A stretch of DNA of 64,000 nt, taken from the IMG/VR virus record IMGVR_UViG_3300025697_000013, positions 1 through 64,000 of that record; one strand, 5' to 3'. Numbering within the stretch: the stretch's first letter is position 1; each line of letters starts with the position of its first letter. The position numbers were made by a program, and so were the translations under genes. Positions 1,888 to 42,560 of this stretch are shown in pieces. The notes beneath the pieces are model-generated. The model was not told where the DNA came from and ran no database searches. It was given only the letters and a program-made list of their open reading frames with translations. This DNA comes from a virus.

Positions 1888-1916
1888 AGCATGCCGCAGG
1901 CAGATGGGCAGGTCAA
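1888..1916 (-). promoter_or_regulatory. Leftward early promoter
   Basis: Minus strand TTGACC (-35, 1916-1911), 17-bp spacer and CATGCT (-10, 1893-1888). Just downstream is GACCCCAGGATGA, related to the GGTCCCAGGTTGA block found after the -10 of sister promoters at 15.2 and 19.9 kb. It reads into the gene starting at 1840. Confidence 0.6.
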
Positions 1917-1922
1917 GACAAT

Positions 1923-1937
1923 TCGACGACCCGTCGA
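1923..1937. promoter_or_regulatory. 15-bp inverted repeat, operator-like
   Basis: TCGACG-ACC-CGTCGA has perfect 6-bp arms. It sits 6 bp upstream of the leftward -35 and 26 bp upstream of the rightward -35, so one bound protein could control both divergent operons. It is one of several near-identical sites in the window. Confidence 0.75.
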
Positions 1938-1963
1938 TCTTTTTTCCCGTTTGCTTTTTCCGC

Positions 1964-1991
1964 TTGACAAAGATACGCCGTACCCTATGGT
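1964..1991 (+). promoter_or_regulatory. Rightward early promoter
   Basis: TTGACA at 1964-1969, 16-bp spacer and TATGGT at 1986-1991. Transcription would begin near 1998, just ahead of the GGAGG that serves the gene at 2010. A pyrimidine/T-rich tract lies immediately upstream of the -35. Confidence 0.7.
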
Positions 1992-2009
1992 TATGACGTG
2001 GAGGACGAA

Positions 2010-2159
2010 ATGACGAAAGTAAAAATCCCACAGAAGTTGACGTGCCTGCGATGCGGACACGTCTGGATCCCCCGCAAGTCTACCGTGCTTGCTTGTCCGA
2101 AATGCCGATCTCCATATTGGAACCGGCCACGCAGGCAGAAAAAGAAGGCGGCCAAGTGA
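2010..2159 (+). CDS. Small zinc-ribbon protein
   Basis: 49 aa with GGAGG 5 bases before the ATG. Two CxxC knuckles (CLRCGHVWIPR and CPKCRSPYW) followed by a basic tail (RRQKKKAAK) make a classic zinc ribbon. Short proteins with this pattern are common in phages and archaea and are presumed nucleic-acid or protein binders. It is the first gene of the rightward operon, and its stop overlaps the next start as GTGA. Confidence 0.75.
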   Translation: MTKVKIPQKLTCLRCGHVWIPRKSTVLACPKCRSPYWNRPRRQKKKAAK

Positions 2160-2689
2160 TCCACCGCGCCTACAAGACCGAACTGGACCCCAACGACCGG
2201 CAGCGGACCGCGCTGTTGCGTCATGCCGGCGCGGCCAGGTGGGCGTACAACTTCGGCCTTCGCCGTAAGGTAGACGCCTTCGAGGCAGCCTGGGGCGTTC
2301 CCTGTGACTTGGATGGAGGTGCCCTGATGGAGACCGAGACCAGCAAGGTGAAGGTCCGGACCGGGCCGGTGAACCCGTACTACCTGCGGCTGCGCCCGCG
2401 GCGCCTGACGTTCCGGCAGCGGTTGCGGATCCTCTTTGGTGGGACGCTGACCACGTTCGTGGAGATGGACTCGGACGGGGCAGGCCCGTACCGCGCCCAG
2501 GGATACCTCCACGGCGCCACCGTCGGCGTCGAGCTGGCTGGCAGCGACGACTGGGAGTCCCTGGCCCCAGGCGGCCTGCTCTCGCCGTCGCAGGCGGAGC
2601 GGTTCCTTGAGGCGCTTGCAGGCGAGTCGGACATGACCGCGGAGCGGATGATCCTGGATGCAATACAGACGTCGGCCGGCGATAGCTGA
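2156..2689 (+). CDS. TnpB/OrfB N-terminal HTH-like segment fused to an unknown domain
   Basis: 177 aa from a GTG at 2156 coupled to the upstream stop. Residues 1-40 (starting VIHRAYKTELDPNDRQRTAL and continuing to GAARWAYNFGL) match the N-terminal helix-turn-helix signature of IS200/IS605-type OrfB (TnpB) proteins: R-Y-K, P-x-x-x-Q, then an R-x-x-Y-N element. No RuvC or Zn-finger part of TnpB follows. Residues 58-177 form an unrelated domain that has its own GGAGG and ATG at 2327, so the shorter 120-aa product could be made separately. The first part may be a domesticated transposon remnant. Confidence 0.65.
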   Translation: MIHRAYKTELDPNDRQRTALLRHAGAARWAYNFGLRRKVDAFEAAWGVPCDLDGGALMETETSKVKVRTGPVNPYYLRLRPRRLTFRQRLRILFGGTLTTFVEMDSDGAGPYRAQGYLHGATVGVELAGSDDWESLAPGGLLSPSQAERFLEALAGESDMTAERMILDAIQTSAGDS

Positions 2690-2703
2690 CTGGGAGGTGT
2701 GAA

Positions 2704-3441
2704 ATGAACACAAGAGTCCTGTATCTGAAGAGTCGTGGCAAAGGGGACGCTCGGGAATGCTACTGTTGTGTAGATGAGTACGATAGCGTCTACAAGTGGT
2801 GCAGTTGGCCAGAGTGGCGTATCTATCCCCCAAGTGGTGCCATTTTCTTAGACGCTATCGAGATCCGCATACTGATCAAGGACGATCACCGAGACCAGAT
2901 CATGAAATTCGTGCAGAGCTCCGCCCCTTTCGATGTAGATTTGTCCGAGTGCGGACCCTGCGACGTATGCGATGGCCCCTGCCCCCTTCTTCATTGCGGA
3001 GCAGGAGACGGCCCCATGAGGACTATCATCGCCGGCAGCCGCGGGATCAAGGACATCGCCCTCGTCCGAGCTGCGGTGGACCTCGCGGGATTCGAGATCT
3101 CGGAGGTCTTCTCCGGAGGGGCCCAGGGCGTCGATCAGCTCGGGGAGTCGGTGGCGTACAGCCGTCACATCCAGGTGAGGACGTTCCCCGCTGATTGGGA
3201 CAAGCACGGCCTGTCGGCGGGGCCGATCCGCAATCTGGAGATGGCAGCCGCAGCGGACGCGCTGATCGCCGTGTGGGACGGTGAGAGCCGGGGGACCAAG
3301 CACATGATCGAGACGGCCGTGAAGGTCGGCTTGCGGGTATTCGTGCTCGGGCCTGGCGAGGGGGTACTGCCGGCGAACGATCGCAGGTTCCAGTGGTTGG
3401 AGCCGTTACATAAACAAACCAACAGCGGAGGACAGAGATGA
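2704..3441 (+). CDS. SLOG (YspA/DUF2493-like) protein with a Cys-rich N-terminal extension
   Basis: 245 aa with GGGAGG before the ATG. Residues 105-220 carry SLOG-family (Rossmann-like nucleotide-binding) features: IIAGSRG at the first strand, then SGGAQGVDQLGE and a GTKHMIETA helix. SLOG domains bind nucleotides or their derivatives; exact ligands of the phage YspA-like forms are not established here. Residues 1-104 contain seven cysteines, several in the CGPCDVCDGPC cluster, and are not recognised. A second SD and ATG at 3016 sit exactly at the domain boundary, so a stand-alone SLOG protein may also be translated. Confidence 0.75.
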   Translation: MNTRVLYLKSRGKGDARECYCCVDEYDSVYKWCSWPEWRIYPPSGAIFLDAIEIRILIKDDHRDQIMKFVQSSAPFDVDLSECGPCDVCDGPCPLLHCGAGDGPMRTIIAGSRGIKDIALVRAAVDLAGFEISEVFSGGAQGVDQLGESVAYSRHIQVRTFPADWDKHGLSAGPIRNLEMAAAADALIAVWDGESRGTKHMIETAVKVGLRVFVLGPGEGVLPANDRRFQWLEPLHKQTNSGGQR

Positions 3442-3713
3442 AGCAGTCGATTATCGACACAGTACAAAGGGAGTTTACAGAACGAGTACGGTCAGCGATC
3501 GCACTCCGTGCCAATCTCGTTGAGCGCGAGAAGAAGTACGCCGATGACAGACTCGCCCTCCATGATGAGGAACGCGCGATCATAGAGTTGGCCGTCTTCC
3601 TCGAGGACAACAAGCCGGAGGACTCGGAGGCCGCGCACCCGTTGCTCAAGGACGAAGAGACCCACTACCTCTTCGAGCGGCTCCGCAAGGTCGGCGCGAC
3701 GAACCTGCGATGA
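3438..3713 (+). CDS. Small helical hypothetical protein
   Basis: 91 aa. The ATG overlaps the upstream stop as ATGA, with GGAGGA upstream. The sequence is strongly charged and helical (EREKKYADDRLALHDEERAI), suggesting a coiled-coil or helical bundle. No family is recognised. Confidence 0.7.
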   Translation: MKQSIIDTVQREFTERVRSAIALRANLVEREKKYADDRLALHDEERAIIELAVFLEDNKPEDSEAAHPLLKDEETHYLFERLRKVGATNLR

Positions 3714-3844
3714 CCTGGCCCGAGGGCTGCGTTCACGCCTTCGTGTGGGCCTCTTGCGCAGCGATGGGGGTGGTTGGCGCTCTGCCTGGTTGGGGGGCTC
3801 TCGTTGGCGCCCTGGTTGGATCGGCGATGATGAAGAGGAGGTAA
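3710..3844 (+). CDS. Small Gly/Ala/Val-rich membrane peptide
   Basis: 44 aa, with its start overlapping the upstream stop as ATGA. The peptide is hydrophobic and glycine-rich (GVVGALPGWGALVGALVGS) and ends KRR, as a single- or hairpin-TM protein with a cytoplasmic basic end would. Its short length makes function unassignable, but coupling on both sides supports translation. Confidence 0.5.
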   Translation: MTWPEGCVHAFVWASCAAMGVVGALPGWGALVGALVGSAMMKRR

Positions 3845-3847
3845 GCG

Positions 3848-3890
3848 ATGTCAGTAGCACAGCAACTCGGACACGTCCAGGCAGAGGCCT
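3848..3890 (+). repeat. 43-bp direct repeat, copy 1
   Basis: It matches 7526-7568 at 41 of 43 bases, differing only at the 8th and 19th base. Both copies begin at an ATG behind a GAGGAGG-type SD. Confidence 0.85.
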
Positions 3891-3910
3891 GGGAGGAAAA
3901 CAAGACATGA
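3848..3910 (+). CDS. 20-aa peptide, duplicated 5' end of the gene at 7526
   Basis: ATG at 3848 preceded by GAGGAGG. The first 14 codons (MSVAQQLGHVQAEA) are almost the same as those of the 187-aa gene at 7526; the DNA is identical at 41 of 43 positions. It then diverges and stops after 20 residues, with the TGA overlapping the next ATG. It is either a truncated paralogue left by recombination or a short coupling leader. Confidence 0.45.
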   Translation: MSVAQQLGHVQAEAWEENKT

Positions 3911-4131
3911 ATAAGACACTCGAAGTAACGATCAGAATGACGGCAGCGATCCAGAAAGGTGCGCAAATGAAGGTGCGCAGAAACTTCTTGGATTTCTTCG
4001 CTGACAGGATTCGGCAGGCATGTACCGAGGGCAGTCTGGTGTCCATGATGGAGCGCCTGATTGAGTCTGTGGACTTTGCGGCAGACCAGATACCTGGCAT
4101 GGATGCGCTCCCGAGAACCATGACAGGCTGA
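3907..4131 (+). CDS. Small helical hypothetical protein
   Basis: 74 aa. The ATG at 3907 overlaps the upstream stop (ATGA), and GGAGG lies 10 bases upstream. A basic stretch (MKVRRNFLDFFADRIRQA) is followed by an amphipathic helix. No family is recognised. Confidence 0.65.
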   Translation: MNKTLEVTIRMTAAIQKGAQMKVRRNFLDFFADRIRQACTEGSLVSMMERLIESVDFAADQIPGMDALPRTMTG

Positions 4132-4208
4132 TTCGGTGGCTCCTGAAAAGGCGCGTCGGCGATGTCGAGAAGGCAGGCTGGGTCCGCGTCTACGGTCCAC
4201 CGGAGAGC

Positions 4209-4525: not shown

Positions 4526-4527
4526 CC

Positions 4528-7178: not shown

Positions 7179-7516
7179 GTGAGATCAGGCAACTCGACGA
7201 GGCGATCCTGCACTGCGGCGAGGTCGCGACGAAGGGCAGGGACTGCGCTGCGGACCACGAGCAGCTCCGCTCCTGGCTCATGGATCTCCGACGCCTACGC
7301 GCCATCTTCCCCCGAATCCTGAATGCCCTCTGCAATGGCTCGGGCTGTCTACCCGAGGCGTCTGTGGAATTCATGGAAGGGATCCCCGACGAGGTGCGGG
7401 CCGAGGTCCAGAAGTGGAGGTACCTTGCCTCCGACCCCGCGCAGTACACAGAGAAGGACCCACCCGGACCGGGTGGACCGTACGCGTACAACGGCGGGCA
7501 CTGCGAGTGCCATTGA
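7175..7516 (+). CDS. Hypothetical protein
   Basis: 113 aa, ATGA-coupled to the gene before. The N-terminal half is helical (DHEQLRSWLMDLRRLRAIFP). The C-terminus is Pro/Gly-rich and ends GGHCECH, a possible small metal site. No family is recognised. Confidence 0.7.
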   Translation: MSEIRQLDEAILHCGEVATKGRDCAADHEQLRSWLMDLRRLRAIFPRILNALCNGSGCLPEASVEFMEGIPDEVRAEVQKWRYLASDPAQYTEKDPPGPGGPYAYNGGHCECH

Positions 7517-7525
7517 GGAGGAACC

Positions 7526-9282: not shown

Positions 9283-9310
9283 ATCATAGCAAACCCTGCG
9301 TCCTTGTCAA
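9283..9310 (-). promoter_or_regulatory. Strong leftward promoter
   Basis: Minus strand TTGACA (9310-9305), 16-bp spacer and TATGAT (9288-9283), the best sigma70 match in the window. The 5' leader to the 9231 start is about 45 bases. Confidence 0.8.
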
Positions 9311-9319
9311 CACTTTTTT

Positions 9320-9334
9320 TCGACGATACGTCGA
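9320..9334. promoter_or_regulatory. 15-bp inverted repeat, operator-like
   Basis: TCGACG-ATA-CGTCGA, perfect arms, 9 bp upstream of the -35 and flanked by T/A runs on both sides. This is the canonical copy of the dispersed element. Confidence 0.8.
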
Positions 9335-9385: not shown

Positions 9386-9443
9386 TAGACCACGGACGGA
9401 CGGCCAAGGTGGTCGTCGCAACGTCGAACGAAGGAGGTAGAGG

Positions 9444-15220: not shown

Positions 15221-15249
15221 GTTTTACGATAGGAGGAGGAGGCTGTCAA
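15221..15249 (-). promoter_or_regulatory. Leftward early promoter
   Basis: Minus strand TTGACA (15249-15244), 17-bp spacer and TAAAAC (15226-15221), then the shared block GGTCCCAGGTTGAC ahead of the SD of the 15195 gene. Confidence 0.7.
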
Positions 15250-15258
15250 GAAAAAAGA

Positions 15259-15273
15259 TCGACGGGTCGTCGA
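15259..15273. promoter_or_regulatory. 15-bp inverted repeat, operator-like
   Basis: TCGACG-GGT-CGTCGA, perfect arms, 9 bp upstream of the -35, next to an A/T-rich run. It lies at the very end of the preceding gene (15279-15749). Confidence 0.75.
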
Positions 15274-15278
15274 ATTGC

Positions 15279-15749
15279 CTAGAAGGGACTGTCGGGGGGG
15301 TCGACCTTGGTCTTGCTGTCGCCGCTGGGACCAGGCTCCGTGCCGAGGTCCAACCCGGGCTTCTTCGCAGCCGCGGTGGGGGGTACCTGCGCCTCGGGCT
15401 CAGGGGCCGGGTCCTTGGCAGTGTCAGCCTTCCGGGGCTTCATGGGGGCGCTGACGGTCTCAGGCGGCGCCTCGGGTTCCTCTGGCTCCTCGGGGCCGCC
15501 GTTGTTCCCCTCGTCCCCATCGCCACCACCCAGGGAGGTCACCGTCGCGGTGTTTGACATCGTCGAGACGACCTCCACCAGGGCCATGTCCCGTTGGACG
15601 ATGTAGCCGAAGCCTGGGATCTCCGGCTGCTCCCGCGCCCACCGCACAGCGTCCTGGGTGTTCCCTCCCAGATCCGGATGCTCCACCGGGATCCGCGCGC
15701 CGCTCTTGTGTACCAACATCACAACCAGCTTTCCGAAATTCTTGGCCAC
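15279..15749 (-). CDS. Hypothetical protein with an SSB-like C-terminal tip
   Basis: 156 aa from a GTG at 15749, chosen because AGGAGG lies 6 bases upstream. An N-terminal domain of about 60 residues (VAKNFGKLVVMLVHKSGARI) is followed by a long Pro/Glu/Ala-rich linker and ends KVDPPDSPF. The acidic residues and final P-F resemble the SSB C-terminal tip that docks SSB partners; the true SSB of the same operon ends DDESFPF. It may compete for or share SSB-interacting proteins; this is inference. Confidence 0.6.
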   Translation of the reverse strand: MAKNFGKLVVMLVHKSGARIPVEHPDLGGNTQDAVRWAREQPEIPGFGYIVQRDMALVEVVSTMSNTATVTSLGGGDGDEGNNGGPEEPEEPEAPPETVSAPMKPRKADTAKDPAPEPEAQVPPTAAAKKPGLDLGTEPGPSGDSKTKVDPPDSPF

Positions 15750-16741: not shown

Positions 16742-17068
16742 TCAATCGTCCTCGTGGTTCACCAACGTCTTGCGACCAGCTTCCCGCTCGAGGACCGTGT
16801 CAACCTCACCCTGGACCGTAGCCAAGGCGATCTGCCCCAACCACTGCGGGATCACGATCTCGCTCCCCTCCAACTGATCCAGGACCATCTCCACAACTGA
16901 CCGGCGCCGCTTCGCTAGGACATCCCCATCCACGAATGCGCCGGGCTCACCGTTCTGGTACGCGCCTGCCTCGTAGAACGCTCGATCAAGCTGCGCCCCG
17001 AACTCGGTGACCCACGCTTGGGCCCGGTCCCTGGCAACGTCTTTGACCGTGCGGGTCGGGGTGGTCAT
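16742..17068 (-). CDS. Hypothetical protein
   Basis: 108 aa; ATG at 17068 overlaps the methyltransferase stop (ATGA). Helical, with acidic patches (DRAFYEAGAYQNGEPGAFVD). Coupled to the methyltransferase upstream, so perhaps a partner. No family is recognised. Confidence 0.65.
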   Translation of the reverse strand: MTTPTRTVKDVARDRAQAWVTEFGAQLDRAFYEAGAYQNGEPGAFVDGDVLAKRRRSVVEMVLDQLEGSEIVIPQWLGQIALATVQGEVDTVLEREAGRKTLVNHEDD

Positions 17069-17751
17069 GGCGCGCACACCTCCCGCAATCGTCCCTCAGC
17101 CATCTGCACCGCACCCTCCTTCGCATCCACCCCGTGGAAGCGCCGGCCCTGCCGCACCACGGCCTCCCCGAACGCACCCGACCCCATGAACGGGTCCAGG
17201 ACCAGCTCGCCCTCCTGCGTGCTCTGGCGCACCAGGAGCTCGCCGAACCCGACGGGCTTCTCCGTGGGGTAGCCACCGCGCACCCGCTTCCATGCCTGGA
17301 CGTTGGGCTCCCCCAGGTCCGCGATCCGCCGCTTTCCCTTCTCGAGGAACATCACCATCTCGTACCTGGATCGGTAGTGGTAGCCCATCCCCATCACCAT
17401 CTTGTCCCAGATGATCGGGGTCCAGACGGTGAAGCCCGCCGCCTCGGCCGCCGTGGCCACGCACCGCCAGCCAGTCTCCCAGTCGCAGAAGACGTAGCAG
17501 TGTCGGTCCCGCTTCAAAATGCGGTAGAGGTGCAGGATAACCTCGGCGAGCTGCTCGTTCGAAATCACGTCGAACCACTCGCCGTTCTTGAGCCGGGTCG
17601 TGGTACCCTTCGCTCGGTGCTTCTCCATGCTCTCGTAGGGGGGATCGGTCAAGATCAAATCGTAGTGATCATCGGGAGCCCACTGCAACCACTCGAAGAC
17701 GTCCTGACAGAAGAGCCGGAAGCCTGGGCCGATGCAAGTGGGCGTAATCAT
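17065..17751 (-). CDS. DNA adenine-type methyltransferase
   Basis: 228 aa. Catalytic motif IV LILTDPPYESM (DPPY at 36-39) comes first and the SAM-binding motif LVLDPFMGSGAFGE comes last (about 183-196), the permuted beta-class order; DPPY favours N6-adenine. The middle contains the IIWDKMVMGMGYHYRSRYEM strand usual in phage Dam-like enzymes. No restriction partner is nearby, so it is a solitary phage enzyme, probably protecting against host restriction. Confidence 0.88.
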   Translation of the reverse strand: MITPTCIGPGFRLFCQDVFEWLQWAPDDHYDLILTDPPYESMEKHRAKGTTTRLKNGEWFDVISNEQLAEVILHLYRILKRDRHCYVFCDWETGWRCVATAAEAAGFTVWTPIIWDKMVMGMGYHYRSRYEMVMFLEKGKRRIADLGEPNVQAWKRVRGGYPTEKPVGFGELLVRQSTQEGELVLDPFMGSGAFGEAVVRQGRRFHGVDAKEGAVQMAEGRLREVCAP

Positions 17752-17754: not shown

Positions 17755-18198
17755 CTAGAAGGGAAAGCTCTCGTCATCTTTGCTTCCACCGCCATCGCCG
17801 GAGTTGCCAGCCGGGGCCTCGCCATCGCCACCGCCGTCCTGGGATCCACCGCCCTGTCCGCGGCCGCCCTGCTTGTCGAGGAAGACGACGATGAAGGCGT
17901 TGACCTCGCTTGTGTAACGGTCATTGTCATCGCGGTCCTTCCACTTCCGGGTCTGCATCTTCCCCTCGACATAGACCAGGCTGCCCTTCTGGAGATACTG
18001 GTTGCAGCGCTCAGCGAGCTTGCCCCATACCACGATGTTGTGCCACTCGGTCTTGCTTTGCCACTCGTCGCCCTGCTTGTATCGCTCGTTAGTGGCGACC
18101 GAGAAGTTGCACACCGCCGCTCCGGAGGGGATGTTGCGGAGGTCTGGGTCCTTGCCAAGGTTCCCAACAATGGTAGCCTTATTGACGCTTCCTGCCAT
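17755..18198 (-). CDS. ssb: Single-stranded DNA-binding protein
   Basis: 147 aa with AGGAG before the ATG. N-terminal OB fold of the bacterial SSB type (VNKATIVGNLGKDPDLR, then WHNIVVWGKLAE and GSLVYVEGKMQTRKW), a Gly/Asp/Gln-rich linker, and the acidic tip DDESFPF that recruits replication and repair proteins. It is the first gene of the operon under the 18.3-kb promoter. A second, tail-less SSB lies at 24770. Confidence 0.93.
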   Translation of the reverse strand: MAGSVNKATIVGNLGKDPDLRNIPSGAAVCNFSVATNERYKQGDEWQSKTEWHNIVVWGKLAERCNQYLQKGSLVYVEGKMQTRKWKDRDDNDRYTSEVNAFIVVFLDKQGGRGQGGGSQDGGGDGEAPAGNSGDGGGSKDDESFPF

Positions 18199-18272: not shown

Positions 18273-18301
18273 GTTCTACGATACGTCGATACGCGTGTCA
18301 A
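18273..18301 (-). promoter_or_regulatory. Leftward promoter for the SSB operon
   Basis: Minus strand TTGACA (18301-18296), 17-bp spacer and TAGAAC (18278-18273), followed by GGTCCACAGGTTGA, a variant of the shared downstream block. The 18199-18438 gap around it holds no gene. Confidence 0.7.
18275..18289. promoter_or_regulatory. Variant operator inside the promoter spacer
   Basis: TCTACG-ATA-CGTCGA: one arm has one mismatch. Unlike the other copies it overlaps the -10 and spacer rather than lying upstream of the -35, so a bound protein would be expected to block this promoter. Confidence 0.5.
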
Positions 18302-18438: not shown

Positions 18439-19167
18439 TCAAGAGCGATCGTTGTGCTTGGCTAGGATCCCCCGCACAGTCTCGGGGTGCCAGCGGGCGC
18501 CGGTCTTGGTGGGGACTGCATCTCGGTTGAATCGGTTGGCGATCGAGGCCAGAGGGAACCCTTCCTTCCGCAGCCGGTGCATCCGGTTGATCACCGCCTG
18601 CTCCTGCGCGTTCTCGACCAGGCCGATCGCCCCGTCGCGAGCGGGTACCGCGTCGAACCCGTAGGGCACCGTCCCCCCGGTCTTCTCCCCCTTGGCCCGC
18701 TTCTCCCCCAGGGCAGCGGTCGTGCGCTCCCGTCCGAGGTTCCGCTCCATCTCAGCGACCCCGGCCAGGACCGTGAACATGAACTGCCCCATCGCCGAGC
18801 TGGTGTCCATCGCCGACCCGCCCTGATCCACCAGGTGGAGGGCGACCCCGTCGCTTTCCCACATATCGACCACGTGGAGGGCGTCGCCAGCGTTGCGGAA
18901 AAGCCGGTCGAGCTTCAGGGCCACGACATTCAGGACCCCCCCCCTGACACCGACGACTTGCTGCACCTTGGCACCCCCGTGCCGGTCCCCCAGGGGCTTG
19001 CCAGCGCTCACGCCCTCGTCCCGGATCAGGTACGTCAATTCGAACCCCCGCATCTCGCAGTAGGATCGGATCGCCCGCTCCTGCGCCTCGATGCCCAGCC
19101 CCGACTCCGCCTGCTCCTGTGTGCTGACTCGAATGTAACCGACCGCCTGCTTGCTTGCCTCAGCCAT
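18439..19167 (-). CDS. Serine recombinase (resolvase/invertase family)
   Basis: 242 aa; ATG at 19167 preferred because TTGGAGG is 6 bases upstream and the catalytic motif follows at once. VGYIRVSTQEQAESGLGIEA contains the nucleophile Ser. KLDRLFRNAGDAL and MGQFMFTVLAGVAEMERNL, with R-x3-R-T after it, are the conserved catalytic and E-helix regions. The C-terminal part (EGFPLASIANRFNRDAVPTK, GARWHPETVRGIL) is a short Recombinase-type DNA-binding domain. It could act in integration, inversion or resolution; no att site or inverted crossover pair was seen nearby. Confidence 0.88.
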   Translation of the reverse strand: MAEASKQAVGYIRVSTQEQAESGLGIEAQERAIRSYCEMRGFELTYLIRDEGVSAGKPLGDRHGGAKVQQVVGVRGGVLNVVALKLDRLFRNAGDALHVVDMWESDGVALHLVDQGGSAMDTSSAMGQFMFTVLAGVAEMERNLGRERTTAALGEKRAKGEKTGGTVPYGFDAVPARDGAIGLVENAQEQAVINRMHRLRKEGFPLASIANRFNRDAVPTKTGARWHPETVRGILAKHNDRS

Positions 19168-19923: not shown

Positions 19924-19951
19924 ACTTTACCGCGTGGACGCAGGGAGTCAA
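19924..19951 (-). promoter_or_regulatory. Leftward promoter for the recombinase operon
   Basis: Minus strand TTGACT (19951-19946), 16-bp spacer and TAAAGT (19929-19924), then GGTCCCAGGTTGAC, identical to the block at 15.2 kb. Confidence 0.65.
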
Positions 19952-19959: not shown

Positions 19960-19974
19960 TCGACGATGCGTCGA
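19960..19974. promoter_or_regulatory. 15-bp inverted repeat, operator-like
   Basis: TCGACG-ATG-CGTCGA, perfect arms, 8 bp upstream of the -35. It abuts the stop codon of the ASCH gene at 19976. Confidence 0.75.
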
Positions 19975-23712: not shown

Positions 23713-24252
23713 TCACCTCCCCTTCTCCGCGTAGTTCACCTCGTAGACACCGTGCCTGACCACCACAAGCCGCCCATCCTTCACGTACCGCAACAGGACC
23801 TCCTCGACCCGGGCAACGATGTCCAGGCCGATGTCGCCCCCCTTCGGAATATCGAACGCGTGCCGGTGCCACTCCTCCACCCGGAGGTGCGGCAGGAGCG
23901 TCGCCGCGGTGAACGGTTCCCCGCGCCCAGGACGGACCCTCCGTAGAACCCCAGCGATGGCTGCTGACCGTAGCTTCGCCTTCCGAAACTCCCGCCTCCC
24001 TGAATCGTCCGACAGGCCCCACTGCGTCATGAAGTGGCCGAGGTTGGAGACGTTCCATACCCGCCCCCGGACAGTGGACAAGCCAGCCCGGTTGAGTCGG
24101 TCCACGATCTGATGCGAGGTGTAGCCAGTGTCCTGACTGTTTCGGATGATAGACCGGACCCGACGATCCTCCGGATGGGGCTGCCGCCGCAGGCGCTTCC
24201 AACGACGATCCATCCGCAGGATCCGCACGGGTTTTTTTCGATACTCACCCAT
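23713..24252 (-). CDS. Protein with a recombinase-domain-like helical motif
   Basis: 179 aa; ATG at 24252 chosen because earlier starts overlap the upstream gene. A basic N-terminus is followed by a segment (TSHQIVDRLNRAGLSTVRGR) that resembles the i-x-x-x-L-N-x-x-G-x-x-T-x-x-G-x-x-W pattern of the Recombinase domain of large serine recombinases, but no catalytic serine domain precedes it. The C-terminal half looks like a winged helix. A DNA-binding role is likely. Confidence 0.55.
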   Translation of the reverse strand: MGEYRKKPVRILRMDRRWKRLRRQPHPEDRRVRSIIRNSQDTGYTSHQIVDRLNRAGLSTVRGRVWNVSNLGHFMTQWGLSDDSGRREFRKAKLRSAAIAGVLRRVRPGRGEPFTAATLLPHLRVEEWHRHAFDIPKGGDIGLDIVARVEEVLLRYVKDGRLVVVRHGVYEVNYAEKGR

Positions 24253-24769: not shown

Positions 24770-25078
24770 TTAATCCAGGAGACGTAATACCTCAACCATT
24801 ACCTCATAGCCGCGGAAAAACCCGCGCTCGTTCTCATACTCCATGGGCCGCAGCCGACCAGTGACGAATATACGCATCCCCTTCTTGCCCCGCTCGAATA
24901 GGATCTGACCGATGGGCCCCCATGCCGAAATGCGGAACCAGGTCGCCTCGTCGGTACCAGTTTTTTTCACCTTGTAGTTCGACACCACGCTCCCTACGCA
25001 GTAGGGGGTGCCCTTGGGGGTCTCTCTGGTCTCGGGGTCCTTGCCCAGGCGCCCCAGGATCTCGACTCGGTTGTGCAC
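24770..25078 (-). CDS. Second, tail-less single-stranded DNA-binding protein
   Basis: 102 aa from a GTG at 25078 with AAGGAG 6 bases upstream. An SSB-type OB fold (VEILGRLGKDPETRETPKG, then TWFRISAWGPIGQILFERGK and MRIFVTGRLRPMEY) ends at once after the fold (EVLRLLD), without linker or acidic tip. It could bind ssDNA without recruiting SSB partners, or act with the full SSB at 17755. Confidence 0.8.
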   Translation of the reverse strand: MHNRVEILGRLGKDPETRETPKGTPYCVGSVVSNYKVKKTGTDEATWFRISAWGPIGQILFERGKKGMRIFVTGRLRPMEYENERGFFRGYEVMVEVLRLLD

Positions 25079-25649: not shown

Positions 25650-26007
25650 GGTCCTTCTGCGACTTCGCGTTCGCTACGGTATCGGTCGGGAACGCAGGCC
25701 CAAGCTTCTCCCGCCATGGGATCATGCGCTCAAGGGGGAAATGCTCCAGTGCTTCCTCGTTCCCGGTGATCAAGATGTGCATGAGCCACCACGCGTCTTC
25801 GACGTACTCCCGCACCGCTTCTCCATGCACCTCGACGAGGACATCCTTGTAGACCTCCAAGGCGATGTTCTCTGCACGCATGGTGTCTTCGGGGTTCTCC
25901 TGCAGCGCCGCGCCGAGCACGACATTCCAGGTGACCCACATCGGCAGCTCCCCGGCTGTCTCCAGGTGGGTACGCCCGATCGCTAGGAGCCTCTCGCGTA
26001 CCATCAT
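25633..26007 (-). CDS. Hypothetical helical protein
   Basis: 124 aa; ATG overlaps the HTH gene's stop (ATGATG). Helical and acidic with several Trp (WVTWNVVLGAALQENPEDTM). Coupled to the HTH protein, so it may be its partner. Unknown function. Confidence 0.6.
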   Translation of the reverse strand: MMVRERLLAIGRTHLETAGELPMWVTWNVVLGAALQENPEDTMRAENIALEVYKDVLVEVHGEAVREYVEDAWWLMHILITGNEEALEHFPLERMIPWREKLGPAFPTDTVANAKSQKDHGTEI

Positions 26008-26285
26008 CGCCGTCTCCCCATCGCCTTCGCCACGGCAGCGGGCCTCTCTCCCTTCGCCGTCTCCAGGAGGATGTCCAACCCAACGCGCTGAAGGTTCCGC
26101 ACCGACAGCTTCTCCTTAGACTGGATCAGCAGGCGCACGAGCGTCTCCACCTCCCCTGGGACTTCGTGGATCCCCCTGCACCATCTGCTCACCGTATTGA
26201 TGTTCCGTCCGATGAACCTTGCGAACTCCGTCATGGATACACCGAGGTCCTGCCGCAGCGCAGCTTTGAATTCCTGACCCGTCAT
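26004..26285 (-). CDS. XRE-type helix-turn-helix regulator
   Basis: 93 aa with GAGGTAGACG before the ATG. Residues 15-50 form a Cro/CI-like HTH: MTEFARFIGRNINTVSRWCR is the turn and recognition helix, with the usual R-x-I-N-x-x-T-V-S-R-W pattern. A helical C-terminus with a basic end may dimerise. It is the first gene after the 26.4-kb promoter and its operator, so it may autoregulate and is the best candidate for recognising the dispersed TCGACG palindromes. Confidence 0.8.
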   Translation of the reverse strand: MTGQEFKAALRQDLGVSMTEFARFIGRNINTVSRWCRGIHEVPGEVETLVRLLIQSKEKLSVRNLQRVGLDILLETAKGERPAAVAKAMGRRR

Positions 26286-26351: not shown

Positions 26352-26381
26352 CTCTACGCTACGGCGAAAGATGAAGTCAAG
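26352..26381 (-). promoter_or_regulatory. Leftward promoter upstream of the XRE regulator
   Basis: Minus strand TTGACT (26381-26376), 18-bp spacer and TAGAGT (26357-26352), then GCCCACAGGTTGACT, a form of the shared downstream block. Confidence 0.6.
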
Positions 26382-26388
26382 GATTAAT

Positions 26389-26403
26389 CGACGGTTCGTT
26401 GAG
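26389..26403. promoter_or_regulatory. 15-bp inverted repeat, operator-like (one mismatch)
   Basis: TCGACG-GTT-CGTTGA, arms matching except one base, 7 bp upstream of the -35, between the genes at 26412 and 26285. Confidence 0.65.
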
Positions 26404-32845: not shown

Positions 32846-34696
32846 TTATTCCAGCCCCGCGAAGTGGTCCTTTTCGGTGGGGAGCTCGCTTCCCTTCCCG
32901 CCACTACTGAGAGGGAGTTGATCCGTACCATCTCCCTTCTTCTTCTTCCGCTTTGCCCGCGCTGCCTCGATTGAAGCCGCCTTCATCTCGTCCTCGGTCA
33001 GCACCCGATAGGTCGTGGTCCTGGTATCGAAGTCCCAGAAGATCCGACCCTCCTGCCCGGCGTCGCTCCGAACCTTCCAGACCACACCGAGCACCACTGT
33101 CTTCGGGACACCTGCCGGCATGCCCATGGAACGAGTGCTGGCCTTCGTGTCGGTCACGCGCGGCCGCCAGATTGTGATCCCGTTGTCGATCAGCTTCTCA
33201 ATATCGGAGCTTCCCTTCAGGTCGTTCATTGAGACAATCGGATTCGATTCCTTGAGCGCGTGGGGGTGATGGATCAGGACGATATGTACCCCCGTCATCT
33301 GCGTAATCTCTTTCAGATCCTGGCACACCCGCTCGATCTCATATCGCTCGTGCTCCGGCCTCGCCGTCTTCACGAACCACCCAAGATTGTCGAGCACGAT
33401 CATGTATGGACCGAAGCGATTGATCGCCAGGTAGATCAGGTCCTTCAAAACGTCCCACTCGATGCGGCCATGGACATCGAAGAATTTCAGCGGCAGACGT
33501 TCGATCTGCGCCACCCCGTTCCGGATGTCCTCCTCAGTCCACTCGTCGAGATTCCGCTCGGTGACCTCCATCACCATCTTGTCCATGATGCTCTCGGGAC
33601 CATTCTCGAAGGATCCAATCACCACAGGGAATCCAGCCCGGGCAAGGTTCAGCGGGACACTTTTCATCCACGTCGTCTTCCCACCGCCGGTGCCGCCAGT
33701 AACGATGGTAAACTCGTGCCGGCGCCATCCACCGAAAACGAGATCCAGGTTCGCCCAGCCGGTCGACACCCCGCGGCGACCCTCTGGGCGCTTGAGCCGC
33801 TCGAGCATCCGTGGCAGGTATTCCTCTGGGCTGGCGATCCGGTGGTCCAGGAGGCCGCGGGCGGCGCGGACAGCGTCGATTATTCCACTGCCAGGCACCC
33901 CGGCAGCCATGGTCATCAGGGGGCTGGTTTCGCTGTCGACAATGCGACACCGGTGTGCCCCAAGACGCTCCGCCAACTCCCGGGCCCGGTCGTATTGGAA
34001 CCCCAGGATCGCGATGTCTTTGCACACGGCGAGCAGCTCCATCGCCTTCGCCTTCGGGGTTGAATTCGAAAGCGCCACCCCGACACCCACCCGCTGGATG
34101 TGGAGCGCTATGGCGTCTAGCTCGGTCGGCACCAGGATCACCTTCTCGAGGCTGCCACCGCCGGGGACGTAGAGGTAGTCCCCCTTCACCGCAGCACCAC
34201 GCTTCGCCAGATCCTCGATGAGCAAGAAGCAGATATTGATCAGCTCCTGGCCTCGGTTCACCGGGATAGCCACAGACAGCTTTCCGCCCTTCTCCATTGC
34301 CCCGAGCCCGAACCTACTCCAGTCATCCTGCTCGATCCCATGCCCAGCAAGGAACACCCGCACGTCCTCGAACCGCTCGCCGATCAGCAGGGCCTGCTGG
34401 TAGGTCGCCAGCATTTGTCCACTGGGACGACTGGTCTTCGTCTGCTGACCGCCATCGGAAAGCAGGGCAGAGAGATCACCCATGATGTGGAAGAGTCTCG
34501 CAATCGACGAACGATCCCCCTCCTCGCCATCGCCGCAGCCATTGCAGCGATAAGTCGAGCTGTGGAAATCGACCACAAGGGGACCGGGACCATCGCAGAG
34601 AGGGCAGGGAGAAATCACGACCTTCGACGGCTCATCGGAATCCTGGACCTTCCACGACTTCCGCTTCGCGTACTGCAAGAATTTGGTCTTGTCCAC
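32846..34696 (-). CDS. Primase-helicase (DnaB-type motor, DnaG-like zinc and TOPRIM)
   Basis: 616 aa from a GTG at 34696. Zinc ribbon C31-P-L-C34 with C51-x2-C54; TOPRIM-like VILVPTELDAIAL (about 186) with a later GFQYDRARELAE; then a DnaB/gp4-type RecA motor with GGTGGGKT (334-341), a MIVLDNLGW Walker B and an IVLIHHPHA strand. The layout is that of T7 gp4-like proteins. It would prime and unwind at the phage fork. The Lys-rich C-terminus is short and probably disordered. Confidence 0.88.
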   Translation of the reverse strand: MDKTKFLQYAKRKSWKVQDSDEPSKVVISPCPLCDGPGPLVVDFHSSTYRCNGCGDGEEGDRSSIARLFHIMGDLSALLSDGGQQTKTSRPSGQMLATYQQALLIGERFEDVRVFLAGHGIEQDDWSRFGLGAMEKGGKLSVAIPVNRGQELINICFLLIEDLAKRGAAVKGDYLYVPGGGSLEKVILVPTELDAIALHIQRVGVGVALSNSTPKAKAMELLAVCKDIAILGFQYDRARELAERLGAHRCRIVDSETSPLMTMAAGVPGSGIIDAVRAARGLLDHRIASPEEYLPRMLERLKRPEGRRGVSTGWANLDLVFGGWRRHEFTIVTGGTGGGKTTWMKSVPLNLARAGFPVVIGSFENGPESIMDKMVMEVTERNLDEWTEEDIRNGVAQIERLPLKFFDVHGRIEWDVLKDLIYLAINRFGPYMIVLDNLGWFVKTARPEHERYEIERVCQDLKEITQMTGVHIVLIHHPHALKESNPIVSMNDLKGSSDIEKLIDNGITIWRPRVTDTKASTRSMGMPAGVPKTVVLGVVWKVRSDAGQEGRIFWDFDTRTTTYRVLTEDEMKAASIEAARAKRKKKKGDGTDQLPLSSGGKGSELPTEKDHFAGLE

Positions 34697-34699: not shown

Positions 34700-35569
34700 C
34701 TACTCGTCCCCGTCTTGGAAAATTCCAGCCAGGATACCCTCGCCGCTCTGGTGGTCGGACTCATCGGTGTCAGCACCGGGCATGGGCGCCCCAGCGTCGT
34801 GGGCCTTCTTCGCCCTGACGAATTTATCCAGGAAGTCGTCCACCCTCGAGGCGTCCTTGAAGATGAAAACCAAATCATTGTACGCGGTCTTCCGGTCGTT
34901 GGCTCCCTGGTGCCATGCCGAATGCAGATTCCCAATGATGGCCCGCTTGCACGCCTTCACATCGTAGCCATCTCGGAGTTGCTGCCGGATCGCATTGCGC
35001 CTTGCGGCAGAGAATACATACTGCCCCGTCTTCTGGAATGCCTGGCAGTAGAAGCCGTAGACCTCCTGGAGGGCCGCCTCCTCTGCCTCCTGCGCCTGGG
35101 TCTTCCGCTCTGCCGCCTTCCGGTCTCCACTCGGCACAGACGGCTCTGCGCCCAGGAGGTCTTTCTTTGCAGCAGCCTGTGGCGGAGGACCCTCCGCCCT
35201 CAAGCGCGAGCGTCGCTGCGAGCGGGCCTCCTGGATCGCCTCGGGGGGATCGGGGCACTTCGGCGGACCAGGGCGGTCAACGCTCTGCTCGGTGCTCCAG
35301 TGGATGAAGACCGCGTAGATCGCTACGCCGTGCTCGTAGGTGAGCACCTGACCCGCAGCCACGAGGCTGGCCATCATCCCATCGACCTCGCTCACCGCCA
35401 CCCCGGGGAAACTCAGGCAGGTACTGATATACATCGGATTCCAGAGGATCCTGCCATCGTCGTCCGCATAACACTGCAGAGTCCAGTAGGCATGCCTGGT
35501 CTCAATGGGGAGCCCGCCGAACAGCGGATCCCGCTGGGCCTTGCCGGCCCATATCGTTCGCTTCCTCAC
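34700..35569 (-). CDS. Replisome-organiser-like (helicase-loader / initiator) protein
   Basis: 289 aa, ATGA-coupled to the SbcC gene. The N-terminus is a winged helix (WTLQCYADDDGRILWNPMYI and a VDGMMASLVAAGQV helix) like phage initiators. A charged linker leads to a C-terminal helical domain (NAIRQQLRDGYDVKACKRAI, then DRKTAYNDLVFIFKDASRVD) that matches the conserved C-terminal domain of phage replication proteins. It lies just ahead of the primase-helicase, supporting a helicase-recruiting role. Confidence 0.75.
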   Translation of the reverse strand: MRKRTIWAGKAQRDPLFGGLPIETRHAYWTLQCYADDDGRILWNPMYISTCLSFPGVAVSEVDGMMASLVAAGQVLTYEHGVAIYAVFIHWSTEQSVDRPGPPKCPDPPEAIQEARSQRRSRLRAEGPPPQAAAKKDLLGAEPSVPSGDRKAAERKTQAQEAEEAALQEVYGFYCQAFQKTGQYVFSAARRNAIRQQLRDGYDVKACKRAIIGNLHSAWHQGANDRKTAYNDLVFIFKDASRVDDFLDKFVRAKKAHDAGAPMPGADTDESDHQSGEGILAGIFQDGDE

Positions 35570-39458: not shown

Positions 39459-39461
39459 GCC

Positions 39462-40676
39462 CTATCCCTCCGTCCCTTGGTGCCGCTCATAGTCGTAGTT
39501 GGGCGAGTCGGGATAGCACTTGCCGCAAAGCCGCACGCCGACCTTGCCCGCCGTCCATCTGGCCTGCTTCTCCGTGACCTCCTCGGTGCATCCGCACGCA
39601 CACTCGCACCGGAGGACGCTGGCCTTCGGGGCGGCCGTGGCAGTGTCACCCGCTGCGTGGGGGGGCGCGGGGCGGCCGTCACCAGCGTCCGGGAAGTCCT
39701 GCTCCCTGGGTGGCGTGGCATCGATGACCCGCCCGGGGGGACCGTCGTCGTCCGGCGCGCTAACGAGGTCCGCATCCTCGTTGGGAGGCGCTTCCGCCTC
39801 GTCGGGAAAAGCCACCGAGTCGACCCCCTGGCGTACCGCTGGGTCCGACGCCCCATGCAGTGCGGGGCGAGCGGGCTGCTCTCCTGTTGCGCGTCCGCCG
39901 TCGTAGAGGAGGTCCGTCATCCCTAGCGCCTTCGCCGCGATCATCCGGTTGATCTCCGGGTCGTCCGGCGGGGAGAAGACCATCTTCATCACCAGGAACG
40001 GCTTCTTCAACTCGGCGGCTCCGTACGAAGTCTTCACCCCGAGGAGGGCACGGATCAGCCGCAGCATCGCCTTCGTCTCAGCCATGGATTCGATGTGCTC
40101 CCGCGTCGCCCACACCCGCTCCCAGGCGTCGACCTTCTTGGATTGGCGTTTGTCCTGCTTCGCGTAGTAGTCCTCCGTCTTCTGCGCGGCCCTATGCATG
40201 TTCCGCACCAGCGGCGACTCGTCTCGCAGGTCTATCTCCTTCGTCCCCATCATCTCTATGGGGGTACCGTCGAACGTCGTCATCTGTCCGACCACTCGGT
40301 ACCGGCAGTAGTGTGGATTCAGCCAATCATCCAGGCGCCCGCTCTTCTCCGGGATGAATGTCACACCGGAGGCCGCCGACAGCTTCAGGAGCATGGGCTT
40401 CGACAGGCCCAGCTCGCCGCCCCCTGGGATCTTGTAAACCCAATTGTCCCGGGGGTCGGTGGACGGCACCGAGACAGCGGTCACCGCGGGGGTGAACATC
40501 GCTGGACACCGTTGCAGCATCGCCGGGGTCACGAGGACGTTGTGTCCCCCCTCCATCCCCTGCTTCACGAGGCTCATGGCCTCGACCACCTCCGCAGGCA
40601 CCACTGCCGTCCGGGTCTGACCAGCGGGCACCATCTCGCGCCCGGGATCCTGGGTTGTCTTCTTGTCGTCGGCCAT
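39462..40676 (-). CDS. Probable single-strand annealing (RecT-like) recombinase with a zinc-ribbon C-terminus
   Basis: 404 aa with AAGGAGG before the ATG. The middle (residues about 30-240) includes REHIESMAETKAMLRLIRAL and a VKTSYGAAEL segment, resembling the helical core of RecT-like annealing proteins; the match is only moderate. A disordered acidic/Pro-rich linker is followed by a Cys cluster (VLRCECACGCTEE, VRLCGKC). Neighbours are an exonuclease-like gene (upstream) and SbcCD (downstream), fitting a two-component recombination system. Confidence 0.55.
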   Translation of the reverse strand: MADDKKTTQDPGREMVPAGQTRTAVVPAEVVEAMSLVKQGMEGGHNVLVTPAMLQRCPAMFTPAVTAVSVPSTDPRDNWVYKIPGGGELGLSKPMLLKLSAASGVTFIPEKSGRLDDWLNPHYCRYRVVGQMTTFDGTPIEMMGTKEIDLRDESPLVRNMHRAAQKTEDYYAKQDKRQSKKVDAWERVWATREHIESMAETKAMLRLIRALLGVKTSYGAAELKKPFLVMKMVFSPPDDPEINRMIAAKALGMTDLLYDGGRATGEQPARPALHGASDPAVRQGVDSVAFPDEAEAPPNEDADLVSAPDDDGPPGRVIDATPPREQDFPDAGDGRPAPPHAAGDTATAAPKASVLRCECACGCTEEVTEKQARWTAGKVGVRLCGKCYPDSPNYDYERHQGTEG

Positions 40677-40679
40677 GGC

Positions 40680-41525
40680 TCAGTCCTCCTTGATGGTGAT
40701 AATTTTGGGGGCACCGTCCACGCAGCTCTCGACCCCGCGACAGATCCCCTGGTACTCACACTTCCCGAACGCTGTCTGGCACCGGAAGCTCCGGACTTGT
40801 CGCATGATGGCGCCCTGGAACCAACCAGCCGATCCTCTCGCACTCACCTGCTCTTCTAGCGACACCGTCCGATCGACCTCCGCTGCACCGTCCTCGAGCG
40901 TACGCAGGATCCCGATCCCGTGAATGCTCTGGCAGTCGAAGAAGCCCGCCTCGAGGACGGCACCGAAGCCCTCGACTATCATCGCCTCGTTACCGCGCCG
41001 ACCGATGGGCTCGAAGAGGTAGAGGTCCCTCGTGTCCTCTGCCACCGCGTGTACGATCCCTTCGTACCAGCACCCAGTCCCCATGGTCGTGGCCTGGAAC
41101 TCGAAAGGCCCACCGAACTTCACTTTCCCAGGGTGGCGCTTGGCGATCCCCATCACCTGCAAGACAAGGTTCTCGAGCATTTGACGAAGGACCCCGTGGA
41201 CAGTCCCGACGTCCCGCTCGACACCGCGGCCAGAGAGGTTCCGGATCGATCCCCCGGGCCGCGGGCGCATCCCGTCTCCGTCGAAGAACGTCCGCAGTTC
41301 CACATTCAGGCGGTGGTCCATCTCGTCACCGAATGCCACCCAGACCGGAGGACCCTCATTCAGGATCTCCTGGGCCGCGTCCAGGAGCACGTCACGCACC
41401 TCCCGGAAGACATGGTTCATCCACTCCGCTGCCGTCTCCTCGGTGCGGACCTTTCCTTCTGCCAGGAACGCGGCAGCCCGGGGGCACTCAGCCGCGCGGG
41501 CCAGGATCTCCTTCGTCAGTCTCAT
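40680..41525 (-). CDS. Cas4/RecB-type exonuclease-like protein with a possible Fe-S cluster
   Basis: 281 aa; ATG at 41525 overlaps the methyltransferase stop (ATGA). Cys14 near the N-terminus and a C-terminal triplet FRCQTAFGKCEYQGICRG reproduce the one-plus-three Cys layout of Cas4/AddB-type nucleases. Candidate core strands are CWYEGIVHAVAED and LYLFEPIGRR, but the D...E-x-K active site is not clean, so activity is uncertain. Followed by the RecT-like gene, suggesting an exonuclease plus annealing-protein pair. Confidence 0.6.
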   Translation of the reverse strand: MRLTKEILARAAECPRAAAFLAEGKVRTEETAAEWMNHVFREVRDVLLDAAQEILNEGPPVWVAFGDEMDHRLNVELRTFFDGDGMRPRPGGSIRNLSGRGVERDVGTVHGVLRQMLENLVLQVMGIAKRHPGKVKFGGPFEFQATTMGTGCWYEGIVHAVAEDTRDLYLFEPIGRRGNEAMIVEGFGAVLEAGFFDCQSIHGIGILRTLEDGAAEVDRTVSLEEQVSARGSAGWFQGAIMRQVRSFRCQTAFGKCEYQGICRGVESCVDGAPKIITIKED

Positions 41526-42355
41526 TTGTCCTCCTCTACGATCATCGCCGGGGAGAAAAGCGGCGCCTCGCCGTTGATCCGATCCCGGCCCATCTCTGCG
41601 TACTTTGGATTCAGTTCGATCCCGATACAATCGCGACCCAGCTTGTCTGCAACAAGGCCCGTGGTCCCGGCTCCGAAGAATGGGTCAAGGACGGTGCCGC
41701 CAGGAGGACAACCCAACTCAATGCACCGTCGCGCCAGCTCGGCTGGCATCATCGCCGGATGCAGAGCAGTCCCATCGGGGCATATCTGCCAGCATGATTT
41801 GTATCGCCACGATTCCTTGACCTCTTCGGGCCAATAGTATTTCTTCGATTTGACCAGGTGGGCGACGTACTCATGGGACTGGCTCACCCTGTCGGGCCTG
41901 GCTGGTTCAGCGCTCCGCTTCTTGTCCCATGCAATCACGATCCGCAGATACCATCCAGCCTGACGCAGAGCATCGAAGACCTTGGACGGGAGCAGCGTCA
42001 CGTCCTTGTCCTTGTAGCCGTCAGGGGCTTTGCGCCACCCGAGATTGTCTACAATGCCGCCCCATGCCTTCCGGCCTTTGAGCTTGCCTCCACCACCGCA
42101 GCCGCCAGAAGACCACTTTTCGCCTATGTTGAGCCACAGGGATCCGTCGTCGGCAAGTACCCGATGCACATAATCGAACACCTCAACCATCTTGGCGATG
42201 TAGGCATCAGGGTCATTCTCTGCGCCACACTGGCCCTCTACCCCGTAGTCTCTGCATCTCCAATAAGGCGGGCTCGTCACGCAGCAATGGACGGACTTGG
42301 AAGGTAGCTCGCGCAGCCGTTCGATGCAATCCCCCACCAGAATCCGAACCGTCAC
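41522..42355 (-). CDS. DNA methyltransferase, beta class (N4-cytosine or N6-adenine)
   Basis: 277 aa from a GTG at 42355. Motif IV CCVTSPPYWRC (TSPPYW at 27-32) comes first and FXGXG motif I VLDPFFGAGTTGLVAD comes last, then GIELNPKYAE; SPPY often goes with N4-cytosine but N6-adenine is possible. It opens the replication/recombination operon, 3 bases ahead of the exonuclease-like gene. No cognate endonuclease nearby. Confidence 0.88.
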   Translation of the reverse strand: MTVRILVGDCIERLRELPSKSVHCCVTSPPYWRCRDYGVEGQCGAENDPDAYIAKMVEVFDYVHRVLADDGSLWLNIGEKWSSGGCGGGGKLKGRKAWGGIVDNLGWRKAPDGYKDKDVTLLPSKVFDALRQAGWYLRIVIAWDKKRSAEPARPDRVSQSHEYVAHLVKSKKYYWPEEVKESWRYKSCWQICPDGTALHPAMMPAELARRCIELGCPPGGTVLDPFFGAGTTGLVADKLGRDCIGIELNPKYAEMGRDRINGEAPLFSPAMIVEEDK

Positions 42356-42405
42356 GACCGGCCTCTATTGACAGCGATGTGCGAATTGAGATACAAGATG
42401 GTCAT
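42352..42405 (-). CDS. 17-aa possible leader peptide
   Basis: ATG at 42405 with AAGGGG about 14 bases upstream; TGA overlaps the methyltransferase GTG start (GTGA). The peptide is MTILYLNSHIAVNRGRS. It may only couple translation of the methyltransferase, which has no SD of its own. Confidence 0.3.
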   Translation of the reverse strand: MTILYLNSHIAVNRGRS

Positions 42406-42495
42406 CGAAGACGATCCCCTTCGTCTACGAGGCCCGGCGCCCTGGAAGGTCCCTCACCATCCGGGGCGTCATCGCGCTGGCCTCCAACCACGGGC

Positions 42496-42525
42496 ACTGT
42501 AGATTCGCCACCGAGGAAGAGTCAA
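42496..42525 (-). promoter_or_regulatory. Leftward promoter for the replication/recombination operon
   Basis: Minus strand TTGACT (42525-42520), 18-bp spacer and TACAGT (42501-42496), then GCCCGTGGTTGGAGG. The leader to 42355 is about 135 bases and has short frames only. Confidence 0.55.
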
Positions 42526-42531
42526 GACAAT

Positions 42532-42560
42532 TCGTCGAGCGCTCGTCGATTGATCGTCGA
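42532..42560. promoter_or_regulatory. Triple TCGTCGA array at 11-bp spacing
   Basis: TCGTCGA occurs at 42532, 42543 and 42554, i.e. three half-sites one helical turn apart, starting 6 bp upstream of the -35. They share the half-site of the TCGACG-N3-CGTCGA elements and include a CGAGCGCTCG palindrome. Confidence 0.7.

What the first reader, a model, noticed from the sequence alone, without database searches (positions are those of the whole stretch)
1888..42560. Dispersed TCGACG-N3-CGTCGA palindrome upstream of nearly every leftward early promoter
Perfect or one-mismatch copies at 1923, 9320, 15259, 19960 and 26389 all lie 6-9 bp upstream of a minus-strand TTGACA/T -35 box, centred near position -50. 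A variant at 18275 overlaps its promoter instead. The same half-site recurs at 42532. A repressor would be expected to overlap the promoter, so the constant upstream position argues for an activator or a looping/UP-type site. Such a regulon would switch on all early operons together. It is not a known set that I can name.
Basis: partly seen in the sequence, partly recalled or inferred. Interest (0 to 1): 0.9.

Follow-up and report, generated by a model that had tools for sequence, protein, structure and literature searches.

The report
Replication-initiator boxes at phage early promoters
A phage genome carries the same short DNA sign in front of its early genes, and comparison with many other phages suggests that the sign is read by the phage's own replication-starting protein, which would then couple DNA copying to gene expression.

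Summary
The 86.9-kb phage record has four perfect TCGACG-N3-CGTCGA sites and four one-mismatch sites, all intergenic; six sit 6-9 bp upstream of a -35 box. A relative at about 72% nucleotide identity keeps the pattern. The sites fall into two classes: centres at -49 to -52 (12 promoters in the two phages, both strands) and centres on the -10 (-16 at four promoters, -11 at one). The operon of the HTH gene 26004-26285 has both classes in both phages.

The half-site TCGACGA also forms 11-bp direct repeats: three units at the promoter of the operon holding the replication initiator and helicase (42532-42560), and five in a noncoding region (84237). A viral-contig scan for three such repeats gave 79 loci; in 68 the array lies inside a replication-initiator gene, against 1 of 57 for a 12-bp control. 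That family includes this phage's gene 34700-35569. The HTH protein has no homologue in those loci.

Best explanation: the initiator binds TCGACGA boxes at its origin and, as inverted pairs, at early promoters, probably activating from -50 and repressing from the -10. Binding and direction of control are untested.

The parts
1923..1937 (.). class I site between divergent promoters; centre -49 for the leftward promoter (-35 at 1916-1911, -10 at 1893-1888)
   Evidence: B counterpart 65487 serves promoters on both sides
1888..1916 (-). leftward promoter TTGACC-N17-CATGCT
1964..1991 (+). rightward promoter TTGACA-N16-TATGGT; centre of site 1923 lies at about -68
9320..9334 (.). class I perfect site, about -51 to a leftward promoter (-35 9310-9305, -10 9288-9283 TATGAT)
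   Evidence: the automatic -35 was wrong; read by hand from the printed sequence
15259..15273 (.). class I perfect site, centre -52 to promoter -35 at 15249
18275..18289 (.). class II site on the spacer and -10 (centre -16) of the promoter (-35 18301) of the SSB-methyltransferase operon
   Evidence: same arrangement at B 83836
19960..19974 (.). class I perfect site, centre -50 to promoter -35 at 19951
   Evidence: B counterpart 85481
26388..26402 (.). class I site, centre -51, at the promoter of the HTH operon (-35 26380)
   Evidence: B counterpart 7247
26353..26367 (.). class II site (2 mismatches) on the -10 of the same HTH promoter, centre -16
   Evidence: B counterpart 7212
42532..42560 (-). 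three TCGACGAnnnn direct repeats, 11-bp period, ending 6 bp upstream of the -35 (42525) of the operon that contains the replication initiator and helicase
   Evidence: two units at 12 bp in B 23929/23941 at the matching promoter
34700..35569 (-). replication initiator; proposed binder of TCGACGA; winged-helix N-terminal domain
   Evidence: PHROG replication initiation protein 5e-18; profile of array-bearing initiators 7.7e-13; model and fold search
32846..34696 (-). DnaB-like primase/helicase next to the initiator
26004..26285 (-). XRE-type HTH protein whose promoter has both site classes; rival binder
17755..18198 (-). single-strand binding protein, first gene behind the class II promoter 18301
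9413..9427 (.). one-mismatch site without a matching promoter (unexplained)

Best explanation
The heptad TCGACGA is the recognition box of the phage's own replication initiator (gene 34700-35569, next to the DnaB-like helicase). As 11-bp direct repeats it forms iterons: five at 84237-84291, the candidate origin, and three at the promoter of the initiator-helicase operon. As an inverted pair (TCGACG-N3-CGTCGA) it is placed at early promoters in two fixed positions. At about -50, beside an A/T-rich stretch and a near-consensus -35, the bound initiator most likely helps RNA polymerase (contact with the alpha subunit is the likeliest route). At -16, on the -10, it would block the polymerase. The HTH operon carries both positions and would be switched on at low and off at high initiator level. 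Early transcription would thus be tied to initiator level and to the number of genome copies that titrate it. Shown by sequence: the sites, their two positions, conservation in a second phage, the direct-repeat arrays, and the association of such arrays with this initiator family. Inferred: that the initiator binds the inverted pairs, the sign of the effect at each position, and the origin.
For: Sites intergenic and tied to promoters. Pattern kept in a relative at about 72% nucleotide identity, with both classes at the HTH promoter in each. (TCGACGAnnnn)x3 occurs in IMG/VR in records of 27-67% GC, and in 68 of 79 loci an ORF overlapping the array matches an initiator profile built from F10 gp52, Panchino gp57 and the A/B proteins (69 of 79 with F10 and Panchino alone), against 1 of 57 for 12-bp arrays. 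The phage's own 34700-35569 belongs to that family. 11-bp triples with at most 2 mismatches exist in this genome only at 42532 and 84237; no other period from 8 to 24 gives any, apart from the multiple 22. The direct-repeat array and the inverted pair take the same promoter slot with the same ATTGTC linker to the -35 (42532 and 1923). The 7th base A of the heptad is present on at least one side in 15 of 17 inverted sites where about 44% would be expected. HTH-26004 has no homologue in those 79 loci. Seven distant capsid relatives lack both the initiator and the 11-bp heptad pairs. Precedent: RepE of F binds iterons and, as a dimer, inverted repeats at its own promoter (PMC13028717).
Against: The N3-spaced inverted pair is not found at promoters of other array-bearing phages in the loci held (1 case, inside an array), so the step from iterons to inverted pairs rests on two phages. 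The relative has no array of three or more units and the A initiator gene itself has none. A 15-bp palindrome also suits an XRE dimer. Some sites share flanks by duplication, so they are not all independent. In bacterial genome contigs only 16 of 70 arrays overlap the initiator. The -35 boxes are near consensus, so an activator is not obviously needed.
Confidence: 0.55

Rival explanations
1. The XRE-type HTH protein at 26004-26285 binds the palindrome as a dimer: it activates from -50, represses from the -10, and controls its own promoter through both, as lambda CI or restriction-modification C proteins do.
For: Only its promoter carries both site classes, in both phages. The HTH segment NTVSRWCRG is identical in A and B. 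Fold neighbours include HigA2, Aca2 and controller proteins, repressors that control their own genes by general knowledge.
Against: No homologue in viral or bacterial collections apart from the relative, none in 79 loci with TCGACGA arrays; it does not explain why the half-site equals the iteron of an initiator family that the phage encodes.
Confidence: 0.22
2. A host regulator or host RNA polymerase feature (UP element with a fixed core) reads the site.
For: A/T-rich flanks between site and -35 resemble a proximal UP subsite.
Against: UP elements are A/T-rich and carry no GC-rich palindromic core; the class II sites on the -10 do not fit; sites are absent from most distant capsid relatives, though their hosts are unknown.
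Confidence: 0.12
3. The palindromes are small intrinsic terminators in promoter cassettes, like the promoter-early stem-loops of T4-type phages.
For: A 6-bp stem with a 3-base loop is possible, followed by a T run at 15259 (-); the 34-bp block 1913-1946 recurs inverted at 15283-15250 and a 130-bp promoter cassette is duplicated in B.
Against: Folding energies are not exceptional (z about -1.2 to -1.75; 26388 does not form the stem). 19960 has no T run in the leftward reading. 1923 and 9320 lie between divergent genes. Class II sites lie on the -10. One-mismatch sites show no compensating change.
Confidence: 0.04

Closest known systems
Iteron plasmid initiators with dual use of their boxes (RepE of F)
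   Same: Direct repeats at the origin and inverted copies of the box at a promoter under control of the initiator (PMC13028717)
   Different: Here inverted boxes stand at many operons across a phage genome, not only at the initiator gene, and in two positions; the proteins are not shown to be homologous
RepA_N plasmid initiators (pSK41 Rep)
   Same: Winged-helix N-terminal domain; Rep boxes inside the rep gene (PMC5703833); best but weak fold hits 4pql, 4pt7, 5kbj
   Different: No significant sequence match to any PDB chain and no Pfam match; in this phage the boxes are outside the initiator gene
Lambda O and its iterons
   Same: In relatives the iterons lie inside the initiator gene, beside the helicase functions; weak PHROG O-like match
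   Different: 7-bp boxes at 11-bp spacing instead of longer palindromic iterons (the lambda detail from general knowledge)
P2 Ogr or P4 Delta activators
   Same: Small phage-wide palindromic sites at a fixed upstream position (about -55, general knowledge)
   Different: Those act on late promoters with poor -35 boxes; here early promoters with good -35 boxes and a second site class on the -10
Bacterial DnaA-box regulon
   Same: Initiator boxes also decorate promoters (general knowledge)
   Different: Different protein family; a phage genome

Membership tests
Phage replication initiators of PHROG 16167/1408/2149 type | Sequence match of the protein | tested here: met
   34700-35569: phrog_16167 5.1e-18, phrog_2149 1.4e-10, phrog_1408 1.5e-8
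Phage replication initiators of PHROG 16167/1408/2149 type | 11-bp heptad iterons inside the initiator gene (common, not universal, in the family) | tested here: not met
   Typical of members selected by the array and present in Panchino with another heptad, but absent from F10 and from the A gene; A has its arrays elsewhere. So not a defining family feature
Iteron-dependent initiator with autoregulation (RepE-like way of working) | Box repeats at the initiator's own promoter | tested here: met
   Three units beside the -35 at 42525, two in B at 23921
Iteron-dependent initiator with autoregulation (RepE-like way of working) | Protein binds both repeat forms | not testable with these tools
   Needs EMSA or footprinting
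RepA_N initiators | RepA_N sequence domain | tested here: not met
   No Pfam hit at E <= 0.1; fold similarity only weak
Xre/CI-type or C-protein regulon | XRE HTH gene whose own promoter has activator and repressor positions | tested here: met
   26004-26285 with sites 26388 and 26353, kept in B
Xre/CI-type or C-protein regulon | Regulator co-occurs with the site in other phages | tested here: not met
   0 of 79 loci, none in collections except the relative
T4-type promoter early stem-loop cassettes | Stem-loop terminator upstream of the early promoter | tested here: not met
   Weak stems, T run only at some sites, divergent locations

The most novel reading that the evidence does not exclude
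A tailed phage uses its replication initiator as a genome-wide early transcription regulator: origin boxes of a widespread but unnamed initiator family (TCGACGA) have been recruited as inverted pairs to early promoters in an activating (-50) and a repressing (-16) position, so that replication and early gene expression share one regulator.
Probability: 0.42. Interest if true: 0.78.

Novelty: new variant of a known kind. Interest (0 to 1): 0.64.

Why it matters
Initiators that also control their own promoter are well known in plasmids. A phage in which initiator boxes sit in fixed positions at most early operons would be a phage counterpart of the DnaA-box regulon and would explain how early transcription is adjusted as genome copies accumulate. 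The comparison also gives a recognition heptad (TCGACGA) and a two-part origin layout (heptads, then a purine-rich tract) for a large family of phage initiators that Pfam and NCBIfam do not cover, which makes origin prediction directly testable in many phages.

Tried and rejected
Loose motif search (up to 3 mismatches): at chance level. Pattern site-N5-11-TTGAC in all viral contigs: 43 loci, about what chance gives by my own estimate, and only the relative had two; two near-identical low-GC contigs also show a -10. HTH-26004 as query in viral, phage and bacterial collections: only the relative. SbcC and helicase queries gave little beyond one relative. Distant relatives found by capsid protein have no perfect site. 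Arrays as repeats of coding origin: rejected because 11 is not a multiple of 3 and 12-bp arrays lie in unrelated genes. A serine recombinase site was considered and set aside for the odd centre of the palindrome. Terminator reading tested and rejected. Rfam: nothing in the window. Excisionase-like 8108: no homologue among predicted proteins of the relative.

Full report
WHAT WAS CHECKED. The window is the first 64,000 bases of an 86,903-base virus record; the rest was fetched. A relative, IMGVR_UViG_3300033148_005363 (86,604 bases, here B; the window's phage is A), was found with the helicase protein and fetched whole. They align at about 63-85% nucleotide identity over most of their length. 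Each record ends in a direct repeat (137 bp and 114 bp), so both are probably complete.

THE OBSERVATION. Perfect TCGACG-N3-CGTCGA stands at 1923, 9320, 15259 and 19960; one-mismatch sites at 9413, 18275, 26388 and 84692. TCGACG is the only half-site that recurs among 24 perfect 6-N3-6 palindromes in A, and only at spacer 3. All 8 sites in A and all 5 in B with at most one mismatch are intergenic, while 11% of each genome is. B has sites at 7212, 65487, 68401, 72686 and 85481, and several sites (some with 2 mismatches) stand at promoters that match those of A (1923/65487, 9320/68401, 18275/83836, 19960/85481, 26388+26353/7247+7212; matched by neighbouring genes).

TWO POSITIONS. With +1 placed 7 bases after the -10, class I sites have their centres at -49 to -52 at 12 promoters (six in A, six in B, on both strands), and class II sites at -16 at four promoters and -11 at one (the -35 of 9320 was read by hand at 9310). 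TTGAC follows within 5-11 bp on at least one side of 10 of 13 sites (P about 1e-14). The HTH operon has one of each class in both phages, 35 bp apart. Promoters of several structural and late-looking genes (29054, 74162, 83630) have no site.

DIRECT REPEATS. They end 6 bp from the -35 at 42525, with the same ATTGTC linker as at 1923. This promoter heads a run of leftward genes that includes SbcD, SbcC, the replication initiator 34700-35569 and the DnaB-like helicase. B has two units, 12 bp apart, at the matching promoter. A second array of five units lies at 84237-84291 in a largely noncoding region. In A no period from 8 to 24 other than 11 (and its multiple 22) gives triples.

WHAT READS THE HEPTAD. 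A scan of IMG/VR for three units found 86 stretches in records of 27-67% GC, many with 4-13 units. The most widely shared neighbouring gene carries the array inside itself: a protein that begins MARIRTIKPEFW, which PHROGs calls a replication initiation protein. With a profile built from Pseudomonas phage F10 gp52, Mycobacterium phage Panchino gp57 and the A/B proteins, 68 of 79 loci have an array-overlapping match; with F10 and Panchino alone, 69. For 12-bp arrays the figure is 1 of 57. The A and B genes at 34700-35569 and B 16761-17633 belong to this family. HTH-26004 has no homologue in the 79 loci. Seven distant capsid relatives lack the initiator and the 11-bp heptad pairs. Panchino gp57 has 11-bp repeats of another heptad, TCGCGAG, so boxes vary within the family.

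LINK TO THE PALINDROME. Each palindrome is two heptads head to head. The seventh base A is present on at least one side in 15 of 17 inverted sites; 44% would be expected by chance for independent sites, although some of these sites are related by descent. Direct and inverted forms occupy the same promoter slot. The link is an inference: in other array-bearing loci inverted heptads keep the 11-bp phase (spacer 6, 14 cases) and the N3 form was seen once, inside an array.

MECHANISM. The initiator's N-terminal domain is predicted with high confidence as a winged helix; the best but weak fold hits are RepA_N initiators. By analogy with RepE of F, which uses iterons for replication and inverted repeats for control of its gene (PMC13028717), and pSK41 Rep, whose boxes lie in its gene (PMC5703833), I propose that the initiator acts at early promoters: most likely activation from -50 and repression at the -10. 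Binding, sign and origin are not shown.

ALTERNATIVES. HTH-26004 remains the main rival: its promoter alone carries both classes. A terminator or promoter-cassette reading fails on folding, T runs and location, although duplication of cassettes explains part of the flank similarity.

NOVELTY. A text search for TCGACGA in 5.39 million open papers gave one unrelated paper; subscription papers are not held. The initiator has no Pfam or NCBIfam model hit. Initiator-run control is known in plasmids; its use across phage early operons looks like a new variant.

Noticed in passing
L098-L176 loci, e.g. L109, L122, L105, L169: In initiator-gene origins of other phages the TCGACGA array is often followed by a purine-rich repeat tract (AGGGAAGGGA, AGGAAAGGAA): 25 of 64 non-redundant loci have at least 75% purine in 40 bases downstream, none upstream. 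Looks like a two-part origin (boxes plus unwinding tract).
   Followed up: partly
L184, L313, L315 (Panchino 57, Fishburne 61, ODay 96): 8-bp repeats GGGAACAG or GGGAGCAG inside the initiator gene, at the place of the purine tract.
   Followed up: partly
window 15215, 18266, 19918, 26345 (-), 1882 (-); B 83827, 65445, 65545: A second shared motif CAGG(T/A)TGA just after the -10 of many of the same promoters, in the first transcribed bases. Function unknown.
   Followed up: partly
B 68309-68438, 72594-72723, 85414-85502; window 1913-1946 and 15250-15283: Promoter cassettes (site, promoter, leader) duplicated within the genomes, one pair in opposite orientation.
   Followed up: partly
A about 83300-84320 (L006) and B about 62840-63960: Roughly 1 kb with little coding capacity, rich in short G-rich repeats, next to a possible small terminase gene; holds the five-unit array in A. 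Candidate origin or packaging region.
   Followed up: partly
window 18439-19167: Resolvase-type serine recombinase conserved at 75% in B, in a phage where no lysogeny module was noticed.
   Followed up: no
window 17755-18198 and 24770-25078: Two different single-strand binding proteins in one phage.
   Followed up: no
B (L019) near 61196: A stretch that reads like a tRNA was picked up as a false promoter.
   Followed up: no
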